A stretch of 64,000 nucleotides of DNA, from contig NZ_JAJFZN010000004.1 in assembly GCF_020731145.1 (NCBI RefSeq), positions 124,001 to 188,000 on the forward strand, given 5' to 3'. Shown piece by piece: positions 1 through 39,095 of the stretch. Source of the stretch: Sneathiella sp. HT1-7 (GTDB taxonomy: Bacteria > Pseudomonadota > Alphaproteobacteria > Sneathiellales > Sneathiellaceae). The notes under the pieces are model-generated. The model was not told where the DNA came from and did no database searches. It was given only the letters and a program-made list of their open reading frames with translations. The stretch's first letter is position 1. Each line of letters opens with the position of its first letter. The position numbers were made by a program, and so were the translations under genes.

Positions 1-246
1 GAGCGCCGCTGGGTCGTGTATAAGGGCAAGCCGGAAGCCTCCAAGGTGCCACCGGCGTGGCATATCTGGCTGCATTACACTACGGACAATCTTCCTGATC
101 AGCAGGAACTGCCAAATGCCGACTGGCAGGAAGAGCATCTGCCCAACCTCACGGGAACGGAATTTGCCTATCATCCGGGTGGATCGATTGTAAAGGGTGG
201 CACGCGCCAGAAGACAACCGGCGACTATGAAGCCTGGAAGCCATAG
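1..246 (+). CDS. NDUFA12-family complex I accessory subunit (5' truncated)
   Basis: The reading frame is open from base 1 and ends at a TAG at 244-246, so only the C-terminal 81 residues are present. They carry the family hallmarks: RRWVVYKG near the left edge, VPPAWHIWLHY, and a basic C-terminus (GGTRQKTTGDYEAWKP). The family is the bacterial homologue of mitochondrial NDUFA12 (B17.2), a peripheral subunit of NADH:ubiquinone oxidoreductase. In alphaproteobacteria it is usually a stand-alone gene next to mlaD, as it is here (54-base gap to mlaD). The start codon lies outside the window. Family assignment is secure; the role in this organism is inferred from the family. Confidence 0.9.
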   Translation, partial: ERRWVVYKGKPEASKVPPAWHIWLHYTTDNLPDQQELPNADWQEEHLPNLTGTEFAYHPGGSIVKGGTRQKTTGDYEAWKP

Positions 247-300
247 AATAAGAAGACGAGTTCCTTGCGCCAGTTTTTCGCGCAAGCGGAGGAGGATTAG

Positions 301-762
301 ATGAGCAGTAATATTGTGGAAACCGTCATTGGCGCCGTCGTTCTGGCGTTTGCGACAATTTTCCTTGTCTTTGCCTACCGCACCGCGGATGTAAATACGG
401 GAAGCGGAGGGATTAACCTCTCAGCATCCTTTGACAATGTTGACGGGCTTAGTGTTGGAAGCGATGTCCGAATGAGCGGAATCAAGGTTGGTGCCGTGAC
501 ATCTCAAACGCTCGATCCAAAAAATTACCGCGCCATTTTGAAAATCAGTCTTGAAGAGAATATCGATCTGCCGGATGACAGCTCCGCCAAGATTACATCG
601 AGCAGCCTGCTGGGGAGCAATTATCTACAACTAACTCCCGGTGGTTCGGAAGATATGCTGAAAGATGGCGGCACCATTTCCTATACGCAGGGCGCCGTAA
701 ATATTCAGGATTTGATCGCTCAGGCCATTTTCAGCAGTGGCAGCAGCGACAAGAAGAAATAA
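301..762 (+). CDS. mlaD: MlaD-type MCE-domain lipid transport protein
   Basis: 153 residues. One N-terminal membrane anchor (about residues 9-26) is followed by a single MCE domain (about 38-116) with the characteristic VDGLSVGSDVRMSGIKVG and SSLLGSNYLQL stretches, and a short C-terminal helix-like tail. MlaD forms the periplasmic hexameric ring of the MlaFEDB transporter, which moves phospholipids between inner and outer membranes. A strong Shine-Dalgarno run, GGAGGAGG, lies just upstream of the ATG. It sits between the NDUFA12 gene and a DUF2155 gene, an arrangement I recall as common in alphaproteobacteria. mlaE, mlaF and mlaB are not in the window. A MlaC-like protein is encoded far away at 34062-35405. 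Confidence 0.93.
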   Translation: MSSNIVETVIGAVVLAFATIFLVFAYRTADVNTGSGGINLSASFDNVDGLSVGSDVRMSGIKVGAVTSQTLDPKNYRAILKISLEENIDLPDDSSAKITSSSLLGSNYLQLTPGGSEDMLKDGGTISYTQGAVNIQDLIAQAIFSSGSSDKKK

Positions 763-33885: not shown

Positions 33886-33972
33886 GCCCGCATGGTGAAA
33901 TTGGTAAACACAGTAGACTTAAAATCTGCCGCCCGTAAGGGCTTCCCGGTTCAAGTCCGGGTGCGGGCACCA
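33886..33972 (+). tRNA. tRNA-Leu (anticodon UAA)
   Basis: 87 bases including an encoded CCA. The 5' arm GCCCGCA pairs with TGCGGGC before the A discriminator. The anticodon loop reads CTTAAAA with anticodon TAA. The long variable arm (class II) and the T arm GGTTCAAGTCC are clear. Confidence 0.96.
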
Positions 33973-34061
33973 TCCTCTTCCTGATAAAGCCTTTTGCAAT
34001 TTTCAGCCAAGTCCATACTATATCAAGTGGAATGGCGCGACCGGAGGTTGGGGAAGTAAGG

Positions 34062-35405
34062 ATGGCACTCTTTCGTATAGCGATGCTGGGGGCAGGGCTT
34101 ATCATGGCCCTTGCGGCTGGGCCCTTGATTGCCACTGCCGGGGAACGGGCGACGCGCGCCGAGGCGGTTATCCTTGAGTTATCGCAGCAGGCGCGGGATA
34201 TCCTCTCTCAAACGGATACGCCACTCCGCACGCGGGAGAGCCATCTCGCGGCGCTTATCGGGCGACATTTTCACTTCACGCTGATATCCGAGCTTGTCGT
34301 CGGGCCGGACTGGACCGATATGCCACAGCATCAACGGCAGGAATTTCTCAACCTGTTTCGTGATTTCTACCTATATTCATATGGCAGCCAGCTCGGCGGT
34401 TATCCCGATGATGAGTTTACGATCCTTTCAACCGAGGAAAAAGGCTCCCGTGATACCTTTGTCACCACGCGCCTGACCCGCCCGAAGCGCGAACCCGTGG
34501 TGATTGACTGGCGCCTGCGGGAGGTTCTGGGATCGCCGCTAATCATCGATATCCTCATCAATGGCACCAGCGTCGCCATCAGCCATCGGGAGGGTTTTCA
34601 TCCCGTTTTGGCGAGCGAGGGGATTGGCGGCCTGATTACGCTGTTCCAGATCCGTGCCGAGCGGCTCAATGCAGAAACACGCGGCTTTGCCGCCGGTGAA
34701 TTGTTTGAGCAGGGTCGCTTCGCCGAGGCCGTCGCCATTTGGGAGGAACTTGCGAAAACGGGCGACCCGGAGGCGCAATTTAACCTCTCCATCATGTATG
34801 CGGAAGGACGCGGGATAGAGCCGGACAGCGCCAAGGCTGAATATTGGAACGATCGGGCGCTTAAATCAGACTATCCGCCCGCGCAGCATAATCATGCGCT
34901 GACCCTCTTGGCGCAGAAGAAAGAAAAGGACGCCATTGCACTTCTTGAAGACTCCGCGCGATCCGATTTCGCGCCGTCGCAATATACCCTTGGCAAGTTA
35001 TACAGCTATGGCCTTGGTGTACCAGAGGATCCGGCGCGCGCTTTCGAGTTTATTCGTCTTGCCGCTCATTCCGGCATGGCCGCGGCACAGTATAACCTCG
35101 GCAAAAGCTACCGCGATGGTTATGGCACGGCGGAGGATATAGATGCCTCCTTCACCTGGTTTGAACGGGCGGCTCAGCAAGGCCACGGCAAGGCGCAAGC
35201 CAAGCTCGCGGCGCGCTACGGCGAAGGGGAGGGGGTCGCGCAGGATGATGTTCAGGCACTGAAATGGGCTATCCTCGCCGCGAATGAGGGGGAAGAGGAC
35301 GCAGCCGAATTGCAGAAACTCTATAAAAGCCGCATGGCCGAGGCCGATATCACCCGCGCCGAACTGCTCGCCAAAGAGTTCAAACCCAACCGCGAGGAAC
35401 TCTGA
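34062..35405 (+). CDS. MlaC-domain / Sel1-repeat fusion protein, exported
   Basis: 447 residues from the ATG at 34062, preceded by GGGGAAGTAAGG; an ATG 30 bases upstream is less likely. A signal peptide (about 1-27) leads to a MlaC/Ttg2D-type domain (about 28-200), seen in QRQEFLNLFRDFYLYSYGSQL, the Arg-rich VTTRLTRPKREPVVIDWRLRE and IDILINGTSVAISHR. From about residue 210 to 420 Sel1-like repeats follow (AQFNLSIMYAEGRGIEPD, SQYTLGKLYSYGLGVPED, AQYNLGKSYRDGYGTAED, AQAKLAARYGEGEGVAQD). MlaC carries phospholipids across the periplasm; Sel1 repeats are protein-binding solenoids. The fusion suggests a lipid shuttle with a docking arm. It starts 89 bases after tRNA-Leu and is followed one base later by an NTF2-like gene. 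Confidence 0.88.
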   Translation: MALFRIAMLGAGLIMALAAGPLIATAGERATRAEAVILELSQQARDILSQTDTPLRTRESHLAALIGRHFHFTLISELVVGPDWTDMPQHQRQEFLNLFRDFYLYSYGSQLGGYPDDEFTILSTEEKGSRDTFVTTRLTRPKREPVVIDWRLREVLGSPLIIDILINGTSVAISHREGFHPVLASEGIGGLITLFQIRAERLNAETRGFAAGELFEQGRFAEAVAIWEELAKTGDPEAQFNLSIMYAEGRGIEPDSAKAEYWNDRALKSDYPPAQHNHALTLLAQKKEKDAIALLEDSARSDFAPSQYTLGKLYSYGLGVPEDPARAFEFIRLAAHSGMAAAQYNLGKSYRDGYGTAEDIDASFTWFERAAQQGHGKAQAKLAARYGEGEGVAQDDVQALKWAILAANEGEEDAAELQKLYKSRMAEADITRAELLAKEFKPNREEL

Positions 35406-35406
35406 C

Positions 35407-35823
35407 ATGACAACAGCCACGAAAGAGGAAGTCCTGACTATTGCCCATAAATACTATGCCGCCGTCAATGAGATGTTCACGGGCAAGTTGACCTTGATGG
35501 AAGATGTCTGGTCGAAGGCGGAGGATGCCGTCTATATGGGCCCGGGCGGCGGATATAACATCGGCTGGCCCGCAATCCTGAAGGACTGGCAGGCCCAGGC
35601 CGCGCTGAAACTCGGCGGCACGATCGAGCCGAGCGAGATCAATATCATCCTCGGCGACAATATCGCTATCGTCCATAGCGTCGAGATCGGCCAGAACGCC
35701 AATATCTCAGGCCATGAGGAAGTGGTGAAAATCCGCGCGACCAACGTCTACCGCAAAGAGGCCGATGGCTGGAAGATCCTCAGCTGCCATACCGACGCGA
35801 TCACCTTTTTGCAGGATATGTAA
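35407..35823 (+). CDS. NTF2-like / SnoaL-fold protein
   Basis: 138 residues from the ATG at 35407, one base after the stop of the MlaC-Sel1 gene; GAGGAA inside the end of that gene serves as ribosome site, so translation is coupled. The sequence fits the NTF2-like DUF4440/SgcJ group: an N-terminal helix (TIAHKYYAAVNEMF), VWSKAEDAVYMGPGGGY, then beta strands with NIAIVHSVEIG and ADGWKILSCHTDA near the C-terminus. No signal peptide is visible. The family includes enzymes and simple ligand binders; the ligand here is unknown. Confidence 0.85.
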   Translation: MTTATKEEVLTIAHKYYAAVNEMFTGKLTLMEDVWSKAEDAVYMGPGGGYNIGWPAILKDWQAQAALKLGGTIEPSEINIILGDNIAIVHSVEIGQNANISGHEEVVKIRATNVYRKEADGWKILSCHTDAITFLQDM

Positions 35824-35832
35824 AAAAACCGA

Positions 35833-37407
35833 TCAGATACGGAAACGATTCCTGAGCGCAAGGCCAATCAGGAAGATAAAGGCAACTGCGAGGATGCCTT
35901 CAAAGACCATGGCGAAATCCAGCAGATGGTTGACGTCCGATCGGAATAGCGCCTCACGCGCCTCCAGCATTGCCGTGCGGGATATCGCCGCAAAAGGAAC
36001 AAGCGTCGCAAGGGAGAGTTTCAGGCCATTCCATAACGGCTCAAGCGGTGAGGGGGCATATTTCAGGCCATTCACGCCGTAAAGCAGCCCGAATATCAGC
36101 CATGTCAGACCTAGACAAAGAGCGGGCCGCCAAAGGCTTCGCCCGAAATCACTTGTCCATTCATACAGATAGTTTGGAAGTAAACTGATAAATGCAAGAA
36201 GTGATCGAAAAATCAAAAGGAAACGAAATAAATACCCCAGGTTTTTAGAAATAAACTTTCTCGCCCATTCAGTATTGTAAGGAGGTTTGGCGCTAAATCC
36301 TTCATAAAATCTTTTGGCTTTGAGTTCCTTCGCAAAAAAATCCTGCTCCCGCTCATGATCCCGAGCGTAAACCGCCAGTTCTTTTAACCGGCGGAATTTA
36401 TCAGTATCGATACTGGTCGAAGCTTTCTTGAATATACCCCATATTTTTTTTGGGTGGGTCGTGTATCCAACTTTCATATCGTGCAAGGTAAAATGTGCTG
36501 TCATTGTTGAGCGACGGAAATCAGGCGCTCCTGCAAAACGGCTTCCCTCCAGATCAACAGGACCGCTAAAATTAGCGCCTTGGAAGGTGCTTTGATGCTC
36601 AAAAGTCGCCTCGCGGAAATAAGATTCCTTTTTAAATTCGACTCCTTCAAAATCGGCTTTTCCGCCGCTGAATTCGGCTTCCACAAAAGAGGCATCTCCC
36701 CCGCTGAATTTGGCTGCCGTAAAATTGGCATCTCCCCCGCTGAATTTGGCTGCCGTAAAATTGGCGTCTCCCCCGCTGAATTTGGCACCATAGAAAGAGG
36801 CATTACCCCCGCTGAAGTCGGCAATCCAAAATTCGGCTACTCCCCCGCTGAAGTCGGCTTTAGCAAAAAAGGCATTTCCCCCGCTAAATTCGGCTTCCGA
36901 AAAATAGGCATTACCCCCACTGAATTTGGTTGCCGTAAAATTGGCATTTCCCCCGCTAAATTCGGCTTCCGAAAAATAGGCATTACCCCCACTGAATTTG
37001 GTTGCCGTAAAATAGGCTTGTCCCCCGCTAAATTCGGCTGCAATAAAATTGGCATCTCCCCCGCTGAATTCGGTTGCCGTAAAATTGGCATCTCCCCCGC
37101 TGAATTCGGTTGCCGTAAAATTGGCGTCTCCACTGCTGAATTTTGCTCCATGGAAATTGGCATCTCCCCCGCTAAATTCGGCATTTATAAAGTTAGCGTC
37201 GGCAATTATCGTCTCGGAAAAATCTACGTCTCCCGGAAATTTGAACCCGGCAAAAGAGATATCTTCTTGCGAAAAATCATGCCCCGAGAAATCTACCTTT
37301 ATGCCCGGATTCTCCGCCGCCCATCTATTCCAAGCGTCTTTACCCTTACGGGCGAGGGCGAGGGCTTCTTCCTTGGGAAGGATTTTCTTTTCTTCTTCGT
37401 CGGCCAT
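35833..37407 (-). CDS. 12-residue-repeat (pentapeptide-like) protein with channel-like membrane tail
   Basis: 524 residues from the ATG at 37407 (AGGGGAA upstream). An N-terminal charged segment (1-35) leads to 15 tandem copies of a 12-residue repeat, FSGGDANFTATE-like (residues 78-257), with Phe spaced 7 then 5 apart. Four more pentapeptide-like turns flank it on each side. A soluble linker (about 295-390) precedes a C-terminal membrane domain with hydrophobic segments near 400-422, 430-455, a re-entrant-looking LWNGLKLSLATLVPF, and a last helix DFAMVFEGILAVAFIFLIGLA. The last two resemble the pore helix and inner helix of two-helix potassium channels, but no GYGD filter is present. Cytoplasmic beta-helix plus membrane tail is inferred. 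Confidence 0.85.
   Translation of the reverse strand: MADEEEKKILPKEEALALARKGKDAWNRWAAENPGIKVDFSGHDFSQEDISFAGFKFPGDVDFSETIIADANFINAEFSGGDANFHGAKFSSGDANFTATEFSGGDANFTATEFSGGDANFIAAEFSGGQAYFTATKFSGGNAYFSEAEFSGGNANFTATKFSGGNAYFSEAEFSGGNAFFAKADFSGGVAEFWIADFSGGNASFYGAKFSGGDANFTAAKFSGGDANFTAAKFSGGDASFVEAEFSGGKADFEGVEFKKESYFREATFEHQSTFQGANFSGPVDLEGSRFAGAPDFRRSTMTAHFTLHDMKVGYTTHPKKIWGIFKKASTSIDTDKFRRLKELAVYARDHEREQDFFAKELKAKRFYEGFSAKPPYNTEWARKFISKNLGYLFRFLLIFRSLLAFISLLPNYLYEWTSDFGRSLWRPALCLGLTWLIFGLLYGVNGLKYAPSPLEPLWNGLKLSLATLVPFAAISRTAMLEAREALFRSDVNHLLDFAMVFEGILAVAFIFLIGLALRNRFRI
36637..37176 (-). repeat. 15 x 36-bp in-frame tandem repeat
   Basis: 540 bases encode 15 units of 12 residues with no interruptions. 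Some neighbours are nearly identical: the 72-base pair of units at 36881-36952 is repeated at 36953-37024 with few changes, which implies recent duplication by slippage or unequal recombination. Confidence 0.95.
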
Positions 37408-37555
37408 AAAGTTCCCCTGCTTACTTAAAGTTCTTAAACCCACCACCCCCGCTATTATAACCAATATTCTATTAAATCGCCTGCATAATCCTGTGGGGCG
37501 GAAAGAGTTGTCGGGTGGGGTGGTTTCTGGTAGGACGAGAGGGCATGCTTGGGGC

Positions 37556-38251
37556 ATGCGTACACACTCATATCAAGTGGAAAAAATCGTGAGCGAGTTG
37601 ATCGATCTGGAAACAACCTTTCTGAAATCCCTCGATACGGCGGGCCATACCGATGATCCCTATGATCTCTGGGAGTTGAACGAGGTATTCCCAACCGACG
37701 TGGTCGATGACCTGCTCGCGCTCGATATCGGCCCCTCAAAGATGGATTACCGCATTGGTCGCCGCGAGATCAATAACGACAAGCGTAACTATTTTGATGT
37801 CGGGCGGCAGGCGGAATTCCCGGTCTGCAAAAACGTGGCGGAGATGCTGCAGGCGCCCGCCACCGTCGCCGCGATCGAGAAGAAATTCAACCTCGACCTC
37901 ACCGGCACCTTCCTCCGGATTGAGCTGACGCAGGATACGGATGGTTTCTGGCTGGAGCCGCATACAGATATCGGGGTGAAGAAATTCACCATGCAGATTT
38001 ATCTCTCCCGCGAGGCGGAGGCGGGGACATGGGGCTCCTCCATCTATAAGGACAGCCAGACATTTGTGCGCAATGTGCCGTTCCGGAGCAATTCAGCGAA
38101 TGTCTTCGTGCCGTCGCCGCATACCTGGCACGGGTTCGAGCCACGCCCCATCAACGGCGTCCGCAAGAGCCTGATTGTCAATTATGTGACGGATAAATGG
38201 CGCGCACGGCATGAACTGGCTTTCCCCGAAGCTCCCGTCCGGCTCGCGTAA
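37556..38251 (+). CDS. 2-oxoglutarate/Fe(II) dioxygenase-family protein
   Basis: 231 residues from the ATG at 37556; the frame is open much further upstream only because the repeat array of the opposite gene has no stops in this frame. The double-stranded beta-helix signature is visible: EPHTDIGVKKFTMQIYLS provides the HxD iron ligands, HTWHGFEP the distal histidine and NGVRKSLIVNYV the arginine that binds 2-oxoglutarate. The substrate is unknown; related small proteins hydroxylate amino acids or peptides. Divergent from the repeat protein, with a 148-base gap. Confidence 0.85.
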   Translation: MRTHSYQVEKIVSELIDLETTFLKSLDTAGHTDDPYDLWELNEVFPTDVVDDLLALDIGPSKMDYRIGRREINNDKRNYFDVGRQAEFPVCKNVAEMLQAPATVAAIEKKFNLDLTGTFLRIELTQDTDGFWLEPHTDIGVKKFTMQIYLSREAEAGTWGSSIYKDSQTFVRNVPFRSNSANVFVPSPHTWHGFEPRPINGVRKSLIVNYVTDKWRARHELAFPEAPVRLA

Positions 38252-39019: not shown

Positions 39020-39095
39020 TGGTGAGCCCGACAGGATTCGAACCTGTGACCCGCTGATTAAAAGTCAGCTGCTCTACCAACTGAGCTACGGGCCC
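39020..39095 (-). tRNA. tRNA-Lys (anticodon UUU)
   Basis: 76 bases with encoded CCA. Acceptor GGGCCCG pairs with CGGGCTC (one G-U). The D arm GCTCAGTTGGTAGAGC, the anticodon loop CTTTTAA with TTT, and the T arm GGTTCGAATCC are all standard. Confidence 0.97.

What the first reader, a model, noticed from the sequence alone, without database searches (positions are those of the whole stretch)
35833..37407. Repeat protein with 15 x 12-residue units and a filter-less channel-like membrane tail
The repeat FSGGDANFTATE has Phe spacing 7 and 5 rather than the strict five of pentapeptide proteins, so the coil geometry may differ. The C-terminal membrane part has a pore-helix-like and an inner-helix-like segment but no GYGD selectivity filter. 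A beta-solenoid attached to a modified pore could be a new sensor or channel layout.
Basis: inference. Interest (0 to 1): 0.5.

Follow-up and report, generated by a model that had tools for sequence, protein, structure and literature searches.

The report
Solenoid-fused filterless channel, prophage-carried family
The gene encodes a repeat-protein rod joined to what is predicted to be a potassium-channel-shaped membrane pore without the potassium filter; it belongs to an unstudied protein family, some of whose members ride on bacterial viruses, and may be a one-gene relative of a known anti-phage channel.

Summary
The - strand gene 37407..35833 (524 aa) has 15 units of 12 residues with Phe spacing 5/7, a linker, and a tail of TM1, pore helix and TM2 without GYGD. 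AlphaFold models it confidently (pLDDT 91). The tail aligns to Kir2.2 (Z 10.1, 2.4 A, 90 residues); of the 50 rows shown, only HalA, the Hailong anti-phage channel, spans the whole tail (Z 9.3, 3.9 A, 159 residues).

The protein fails the HalA test (21.9 bits, cut-off 250) and no HalB was found nearby. It matches phrog_25690 (unknown function), apparently a stand-alone family. Ion_trans_2 does not match the gene. A 5/7 or 5/6 array goes with this tail (38 of 38); 25 of 26 other Pentapeptide_3 loci are strict fives. Five distant homologues keep GYGD.

All four IMG/VR contigs found with a relative hold phage head or packaging genes. In Sneathiella the site is occupied in 4 genomes and empty in 3, and the solenoid diverges faster than the pore. 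Best guess: a self-contained sensor-channel for phage exclusion. Function, tetramer and conduction are inferred, not shown.

The parts
35833..37407 (-). whole gene, 524 aa, matches phrog_25690
   Evidence: PHROGs E 2.3e-40, best stretch 15-196
37228..37407 (-). N-terminal cap, residues 1-60 (two helices 12-32)
36637..37176 (-). 15 x 12-residue solenoid array, residues 78-257, Phe spacing 5/7
36298..36528 (-). end of solenoid and helical linker, residues 294-370 (FRRLKELAVYARDHEREQDFFAKELKAKR)
36190..36297 (-). in-frame insertion of about 36 residues (371-406), only in the window protein among 69 tails
36058..36147 (-). FGRSLWRP motif and TM1, residues 421-450
35977..36045 (-). pore helix and place of the lost filter, residues 455-477 (LEPLWNGLKLSLATL VPFAAISR)
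35839..35928 (-). TM2, residues 494-523
34032..35405 (+). flanking MlaC-Sel1 gene, one border of the presence/absence site
37553..38251 (+). flanking 2OG-Fe(II) oxygenase-like gene (Pfam match below its cut-off), the other border

Best explanation
It is a membrane protein with a right-handed beta-solenoid (about 24 residues per turn instead of 20), a helical linker, and a two-TM pore of the potassium-channel fold whose GYGD filter is replaced by Pro-Phe and a longer outer loop. It most likely sits with the solenoid in the cytosol and assembles as a tetramer, as K+ channels do. The variable solenoid and the linker act as a built-in sensor and gate. When the solenoid meets its trigger, probably a phage-derived molecule, the pore opens without K+ selectivity, the membrane depolarises, and the infected cell stops supporting the phage. 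Shown here: sequence layout, predicted fold, profile relation to a GYGD channel branch, no shared partner gene found, carriage by some prophages, presence/absence in Sneathiella, solenoid diverging faster than pore. Inferred: topology, tetramer, conduction, gating, anti-phage role.
For: Full-length model pLDDT 91.2, pTM 0.83; tail model 91.0, pTM 0.77. Tail against PDB: Kir2.2 3spg Z 10.1, 2.4 A, 90 residues; HalA 9nyi Z 9.3, 3.9 A, 159 residues, the only one of 50 rows shown that spans the whole tail. Foldseek, full model: HalA rank 2, E 1.7e-4, prob 1.00. Profile of 69 tails against 5 GYGD-bearing pentapeptide channels: hhalign prob 95.4, score 55.1; 22 reversed or shuffled controls score at most 16.5. 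Phage carriage: 4 of 4 IMG/VR contigs with a relative hold terminase, portal or head-protease genes. In two phages whose MTase, endolysin and TerL are 97.7, 99.3 and 92.3% identical, the channel protein in the same slot is 52% over 324 C-terminal residues and 31% over 136 N-terminal ones. Site occupied in 4 and empty in 3 Sneathiella genomes. Pore dN/dS 0.073, 0.074 and 0.272 against three orthologues; solenoid dN 5.8, 4.2 and 1.6 times the pore's. Two other relatives sit next to listed defence genes (HerA, PD-Lambda-2_B).
Against: No functional datum of any kind. Ion_trans_2 is not found at this gene in G000 nor at the family gene of 7 other same-genus carriers, though it finds other channels in 7 of those 8 genomes. 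With the linker and YG motif removed, the membrane part alone does not match the GYGD branch (score 15.1). HalA by sequence is weak (hhalign prob 3.5, E 0.012). Foldseek with the tail alone gives no match at E 0.001: KcsA prob 0.96 but E 1.2, HalA prob 0.90 but E 1.3; the full-model HalA alignment has TM 0.24/0.35 and rmsd 11.8. VIA warns that Z under about 13 for helical proteins can mean only a common arrangement. In the most distant orthologue (L033) the pore is less conserved than the linker, 0.53 against 0.65. Only 2 of 98 immediate neighbours were traced to strong PADLOC hits, and no background rate was measured. The window copy lies in an ordinary chromosomal neighbourhood. 0 of 50,697 named phages match.
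Confidence: 0.5

Rival explanations
1. A stress- or ligand-gated ion channel of the host (osmotic, pH or ion sensing) with no link to phages; phage copies are passengers.
For: The window copy and three Sneathiella orthologues sit in a conserved chromosomal neighbourhood; no neighbour family pointing to defence is shared across lineages; the GYGD-bearing relative L120 also stands alone.
Against: Empty site in 3 genomes of the genus, phage genes around 4 of 4 IMG/VR copies, solenoid diverging faster than pore.
Confidence: 0.25
2. A Hailong effector: the pore is held shut by DNA made by a HalB-type nucleotidyltransferase acting in trans.
For: Same domain order as HalA and the only whole-tail structural match shown; weak HalA model hit over residues 209-448.
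Against: 21.9 bits against cut-off 250; no HalB among 754 ORFs around 64 of the 71 loci; 0 of 38 carrier genomes over the HalB cut-off, 1 weak partial hit, none in G000.
Confidence: 0.08
3. A non-conducting membrane anchor: the pore has degenerated and the solenoid is a scaffold or DNA mimic shown at the membrane.
For: Filter absent; window solenoid is acidic (net -19 over 233 residues) and 33 of 38 members are net negative, as in gyrase-binding pentapeptide proteins (recalled).
Against: In 2 of 3 orthologue comparisons the pore is the best conserved part; over 69 tails G422 69, P428 69, S424 65, P471 57, F472 51, R/K477 60.
Confidence: 0.15
4. In the phages, a lysis protein (holin-like), since it lies near the endolysin gene in two of them.
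For: L204 and L052: channel gene, MTase, endolysin in a row.
Against: In L206 it lies between head genes in the opposite orientation and in L205 some 2 kb before the terminase; the window copy has no endolysin beside it.
Confidence: 0.05

Closest known systems
HalA, effector of the Hailong anti-phage system (PDB 9nyi; NCBIfam NF051894; Tan et al. 2025, cited in PMC13275509; the paper itself is not held)
   Same: Pentapeptide repeats, helical linker, a [WYF]-G-x-S motif before TM1, two-TM channel-like pore; four chains in the entry; whole tail superposes.
   Different: HalA is encoded next to HalB (seen in L127), has a shorter repeat region and a GYT where a filter would be (L127 and 9nyi; that this is the filter is my reading); the window protein has a long 12-residue array, VPFA there and no HalB.
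Pentapeptide-repeat channels with intact filter (L120, L186-L189)
   Same: Repeats, linker, GYG motif, TM1, pore helix, TM2 in the same order; profile match prob 95.4.
   Different: They keep TLGYGD and L120 matches Ion_trans_2 and Pentapeptide in Pfam (the other four were not run); their profile finds Shaker and other K+ channels in the PDB. The window family has no GYGD and its profile finds no channel there.
phrog_25690 (PHROGs, unknown function)
   Same: The window protein and two phage-borne relatives match it, L204 over nearly its full length.
   Different: No function is given there; this report supplies an architecture.
HetL, Np275/276, MfpA, QnrB1 (pentapeptide repeat proteins)
   Same: Quadrilateral right-handed beta-helix; HetL Z 21.2, 2.6 A over 223 residues; the others by Foldseek.
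   Different: Those have about 5 residues per face; here 6 in the model, and they have no pore.
KcsA and Kir channels
   Same: Predicted fold of the tail.
   Different: No GYG filter; no Ion_trans_2 match.

Membership tests
Pfam Pentapeptide_3 (PF13576) | score over the gathering cut-off of 27 bits | tested here: met
   85.5 bits
Strict pentapeptide repeat fold (Rfr) | four consecutive five-residue repeats per coil (review PMC8145042, abstract and passages seen) | tested here: not met
   Phe spacing 5/7, strand every 6 residues in the model
Strict pentapeptide repeat fold (Rfr) | right-handed quadrilateral beta-helix | tested here: met
   predicted model aligns to HetL, Z 21.2, 2.6 A, 223 residues; prediction only, and other beta-helix proteins follow at Z 17-20
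HalA (NF051894) | score over the curated cut-off of 250 bits | tested here: not met
   21.9 bits
HalA / Hailong | adjacent HalB nucleotidyltransferase | tested here: not met
   no HalB match in the window's own genome at E 0.001; none among 754 ORFs around 64 related loci
HalA / Hailong | domain order and fold of linker plus pore | tested here: met
   9nyi Z 9.3, 3.9 A, 159 residues over tail 1..191; predicted model, Z below the tool's caution level
HalA / Hailong | bound DNA keeps the channel closed | not testable with these tools
   needs biochemistry
K+ channel (Ion_trans_2, PF07885) | Pfam match | tested here: not met
   no match at this gene in G000 nor at the family gene in 7 other same-genus carriers; window tail shows only two unrelated weak families; for the 69 tails 25 of 33 matched families were shown, none a channel family
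K+ channel | GYG filter | tested here: not met
   VPFA in its place; 0 of 69 tails contain GYG[DEN]; one GFGD in L035 lies before the pore helix
K+ channel | tetrameric pore | not testable with these tools
   only monomers could be modelled
phrog_25690 | profile match | tested here: met
   E 2.3e-40, three stretches, best 15-196

The most novel reading that the evidence does not exclude
A previously undescribed, prophage-mobile class of single-gene phage-exclusion channels: a hypervariable wide-coil solenoid senses an invading phage directly, without any nucleotide messenger, and opens a potassium-channel-derived pore that has been stripped of its selectivity filter.
Probability: 0.35. Interest if true: 0.8.

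Novelty: new variant of a known kind. Interest (0 to 1): 0.55.

Why it matters
HalA is the only pentapeptide-repeat channel with a solved structure that turned up here. A family with the same layout but no HalB beside it, spread over Pseudomonadota and carried by some prophages, would show that the solenoid-pore unit is a recurring device rather than a Hailong peculiarity, and gives a set of genes to test for phage exclusion. The GYGD-bearing and filterless branches, joined by one linker, also give a natural series for asking how a channel loses selectivity. The wide coil is a structural question that one crystal would settle.

Tried and rejected
Literature: the Hailong paper (PMC12360457) is not held; what I say of Hailong comes from passages in PMC13275509 and PMC12483538, PDB titles, NCBIfam names and recall. 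Searches for pentapeptide repeat with ion channel, phage defence, beta-helix, prophage/superinfection exclusion, potassium channel and nucleotidyltransferase and for Hailong listed no paper that I recognised as describing this family. Only the listings were seen, and some were capped (15 of 98, 15 of 123, 15 of 86), except passages of PMC8145042 ('ion channel' 0 occurrences, 'transmembrane' 1) and PMC8022706 (not relevant). One search was swamped by name matches.

Conserved partner gene: all-against-all BLAST of 754 ORFs around 64 of 71 loci gave, across lineages, only clusters that look like large paralogous families (ABC ATPases 12 loci, LysR regulators 12 loci of which 7 Thalassospira, chemotaxis-receptor-like 6). 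Pfam and PADLOC scans of 98 immediate neighbours from 52 loci (I left out 12 neighbourhoods I judged near-duplicate; 4 loci had no recognised target and 3 no tail match) gave scattered hits (10 proteins looked at singly). Whether that is above background was not measured.

The HalA NCBIfam hit was first taken as a pointer; run over 398 genomes the model rings in 104, in the listed rows mostly on the repeat part alone, so that hit is not evidence of kinship. Profile search of the PDB with the tails found nothing credible, and the viral structure library nothing at E 0.001.

The first spacing control picked wrong frames and was discarded; one search replaces it. In one search some long frames are cut by the locus ends, so a tail further out could be missed among the 26. 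The source of the insertion was not found in the window or in the loci held.

Selection bias: the genome contigs and viral-contig scans used the peptide pattern FLIGL[AG]LRN, so the invariance of that motif in A3 is by construction; rows over 85% alike were dropped. A4 uses 37 of the 58 full-length relatives listed.

Full report
Observation. The gene is on the - strand, 37407..35833, 524 aa. Residues 78-257 are fifteen 12-residue units, FSGGDANFTATE-like, with Phe spacing alternating 5 and 7; the DNA array is 14.8 x 36 bp. Unit DNA identity averages 76% here, against 50% for ten units picked by the same spacing in the syntenic orthologue L030, which suggests recent expansion or homogenisation. 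In the model the C-terminal part has TM1 (426-450), a pore helix (455-469), a helix (474-488) and TM2 (494-523); there is no GYGD.

Solenoid geometry. The AlphaFold model (38 sequences, pLDDT 91.2, pTM 0.83) puts a short strand every 6 residues through the array. It aligns to HetL at 2.6 A over 223 residues, model 39..313 against HetL 0..236; with 20 residues per turn in HetL (general knowledge of the fold) this implies about 23-24 here. In 38 members with this tail (A4) the commonest spacing was 5/7 in 23 and 5/6 in 15. Of 29 Pentapeptide_3 loci drawn from 120 genomes, 3 carried the tail (all 5/6) and 26 did not (25 strict 5, 1 5/6). So a wide coil goes with this tail, with the caveat that some of the 26 frames are cut by the locus ends.

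The tail. Modelled alone with 69 sequences it has pLDDT 91.0, pTM 0.77. In the VIA second look, 48 of the 50 rows shown are channels; the other two are HalA and 9ma5, titled only a transmembrane protein. Kir2.2 3spg: Z 10.1, 2.4 A, 90 residues; KcsA rows Z about 8.5-8.8; NaK has Z 10.4 but rmsd 13 A and is not relied on. HalA 9nyi spans the whole tail, Z 9.3, 3.9 A, 159 residues. The tool warns that such Z values can be generic for helical proteins. Foldseek itself is less decided: with the tail alone no match reaches E 0.001, KcsA has prob 0.96 and E 1.2, HalA prob 0.90 and E 1.3, and unrelated helical proteins have similar E but low prob; with the full model HalA ranks second, E 1.7e-4, prob 1.00, but TM 0.24/0.35, and KcsA has prob 0.97 at E 1.0. 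Ion_trans_2 matches neither the window gene nor the family gene of 7 other same-genus carriers, while finding other channels in 7 of those 8 genomes.

Homologues with an intact filter. A weak hit of the tail profile (E 5.4e-4) led to L120, a pentapeptide protein with TLGYGD and Ion_trans_2 at 1.8e-13; L186-L189 are relatives with the same TLGYGD. These five tails (A6) match the 69-tail profile over linker, YG motif, TM1 and the start of the pore helix: hhalign prob 95.4, E 2e-8, score 55.1, 103 columns. Two reversed and 20 column-shuffled controls gave at most 16.5. The match stops where the filter begins; by register VPFAAISR stands where TTLGYGD stands. The membrane part alone is not significant (score 15.1), so the homology of the membrane part rests on the joint match and the predicted fold. 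L194 is a further variant without GYGD.

Relation to HalA. A HalA-HalB pair, L127, was found; NCBIfam scores are 230.6 (cut-off 250) and 162.8 (cut-off 190), and PDB 9nyi matches its HalA at 1.6e-26. The window protein scores 21.9 bits. Sequence comparison of the tails with L127 is weak (prob 3.5, E 0.012) but falls on the GWGGS/DFGRS motif and TM1. No HalB lies among 754 ORFs around 64 of the 71 loci by single-sequence phmmer; 0 of 38 carrier genomes exceed the HalB cut-off, with one weak partial hit. It resembles HalA in layout; by the tests made it is not a Hailong member.

Distribution. One scan gave 71 named-genome loci, by their titles almost all Proteobacteria, with one Ca. Uhrbacteria and one Nitrospina MAG. 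The profile matched 20 of 398 genomes of the phylum, the window's own and the GYGD-type L120 included. The genus is Sneathiella: the same-genus genome G019 and the named locus L030 share contig length and gene. Of 60 relatives 14 had a match to the whole protein, own genome included and some of them to repeats only.

Mobility. The four IMG/VR contigs with a relative hold phage genes: L204 (O-like replication protein, NinB, endolysin, TerL), L205 (TerL, portal), L206 (head protease, portal, TerL), and L203, which shares its sequence with L052 (integrase, endolysin, MTase, TerL, portal). In L206 the gene lies between head genes in the opposite orientation, like a moron. In L204 and L052 it has the same slot: MTase, endolysin and TerL are 97.7, 99.3 and 92.3% identical, the channel protein 52% over 324 residues plus 31% over 136, its last 190 residues 64%, and the small upstream gene 70%. 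Ordinary phage mosaicism could also give this. One plasmid of 72,556 carries a relative, annotated pentapeptide repeat-containing protein. No named phage matched. How many of the 71 chromosomal loci lie in prophages was not measured; 2 of the 98 neighbours scanned are phage-type integrases.

Presence and absence in Sneathiella. The gene lies between a MlaC-Sel1 gene and a 2OG-oxygenase-like gene in 4 genomes (G000, G007, G015, G019). In 3 others (G002, G017, G021) these two genes are about 80-130 bp apart with no such gene between; in the remaining 4 of 11 genomes with the oxygenase, neither the MlaC-Sel1 gene nor this gene was found in the fetched flank.

Selection. Window against L030, L031 and L033: pore identity 0.91, 0.76, 0.53 and dN/dS 0.073, 0.074, 0.272; solenoid identity 0.49, 0.34, 0.34, with dN 0.434, 0.735, 0.715 and dS saturated. 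The pore is under purifying selection and the solenoid changes faster (5.8, 4.2 and 1.6 times the pore's dN). Against L033 the linker (0.65) is better conserved than the pore.

Mechanism. Tested: layout, predicted fold, partner absence, mobility, selection. Inferred: cytosolic solenoid (by eye no signal peptide, and positive residues before TM1 and after TM2), tetramer, loss of K+ selectivity, gating by the solenoid, anti-phage role. I put the channel fold at about 0.85 and the phage-exclusion role at about 0.45.

Unresolved. The ~36-residue insertion before TM1 is in the window protein alone among 69 tails and is modelled with low confidence (pLDDT 58-79). If it spans the membrane, the topology of this one protein would change.

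Noticed in passing
window 35404-35823: A SnoaL/DUF4440-like gene stands between MlaC-Sel1 and the channel gene in the window; in L002, L003 and L004 the MlaC-Sel1 frame directly follows the channel gene.
   Followed up: partly
window 36190-36297: About 36 extra codons in frame before TM1, in none of 68 other tails; source unknown.
   Followed up: partly
window 36580-37428 (+): A 282-aa antisense ORF runs across the array, probably a by-product of the 36-bp repeat.
   Followed up: no
L057, L059, L073, L081, L085, G003:C194: Two or three copies of the family close together in Pseudoalteromonas, a Shewanellaceae MAG and a same-genus genome.
   Followed up: no
L062 4179-7787: A 1203-residue frame rich in Phe (144 in the 1207-residue open frame), either a giant solenoid or fused copies of the family.
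   Followed up: no
L120, L186-L189: Pentapeptide proteins with an intact GYGD channel pore; no paper on them was recognised in the listings.
   Followed up: partly
L141 (G336): A HalA-like C-terminal part on a long N-terminal half in which no pentapeptide array is evident by eye; similar 575-584 aa frames match in G288 and G321.
   Followed up: no
G099, G162, G255, G308, G320, G362: Frames of 1086-1114 aa match only the middle of the HalA model, within positions 162-281.
   Followed up: no
L080, L043: Relatives next to a HerA-type and a PD-Lambda-2_B-type gene.
   Followed up: partly
window 34032-35405: MlaC domain and Sel1 repeats in one protein.
   Followed up: no
window 33886-33972 and 39020-39095: tRNA-Leu and tRNA-Lys genes on either side of the region.
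   Followed up: no
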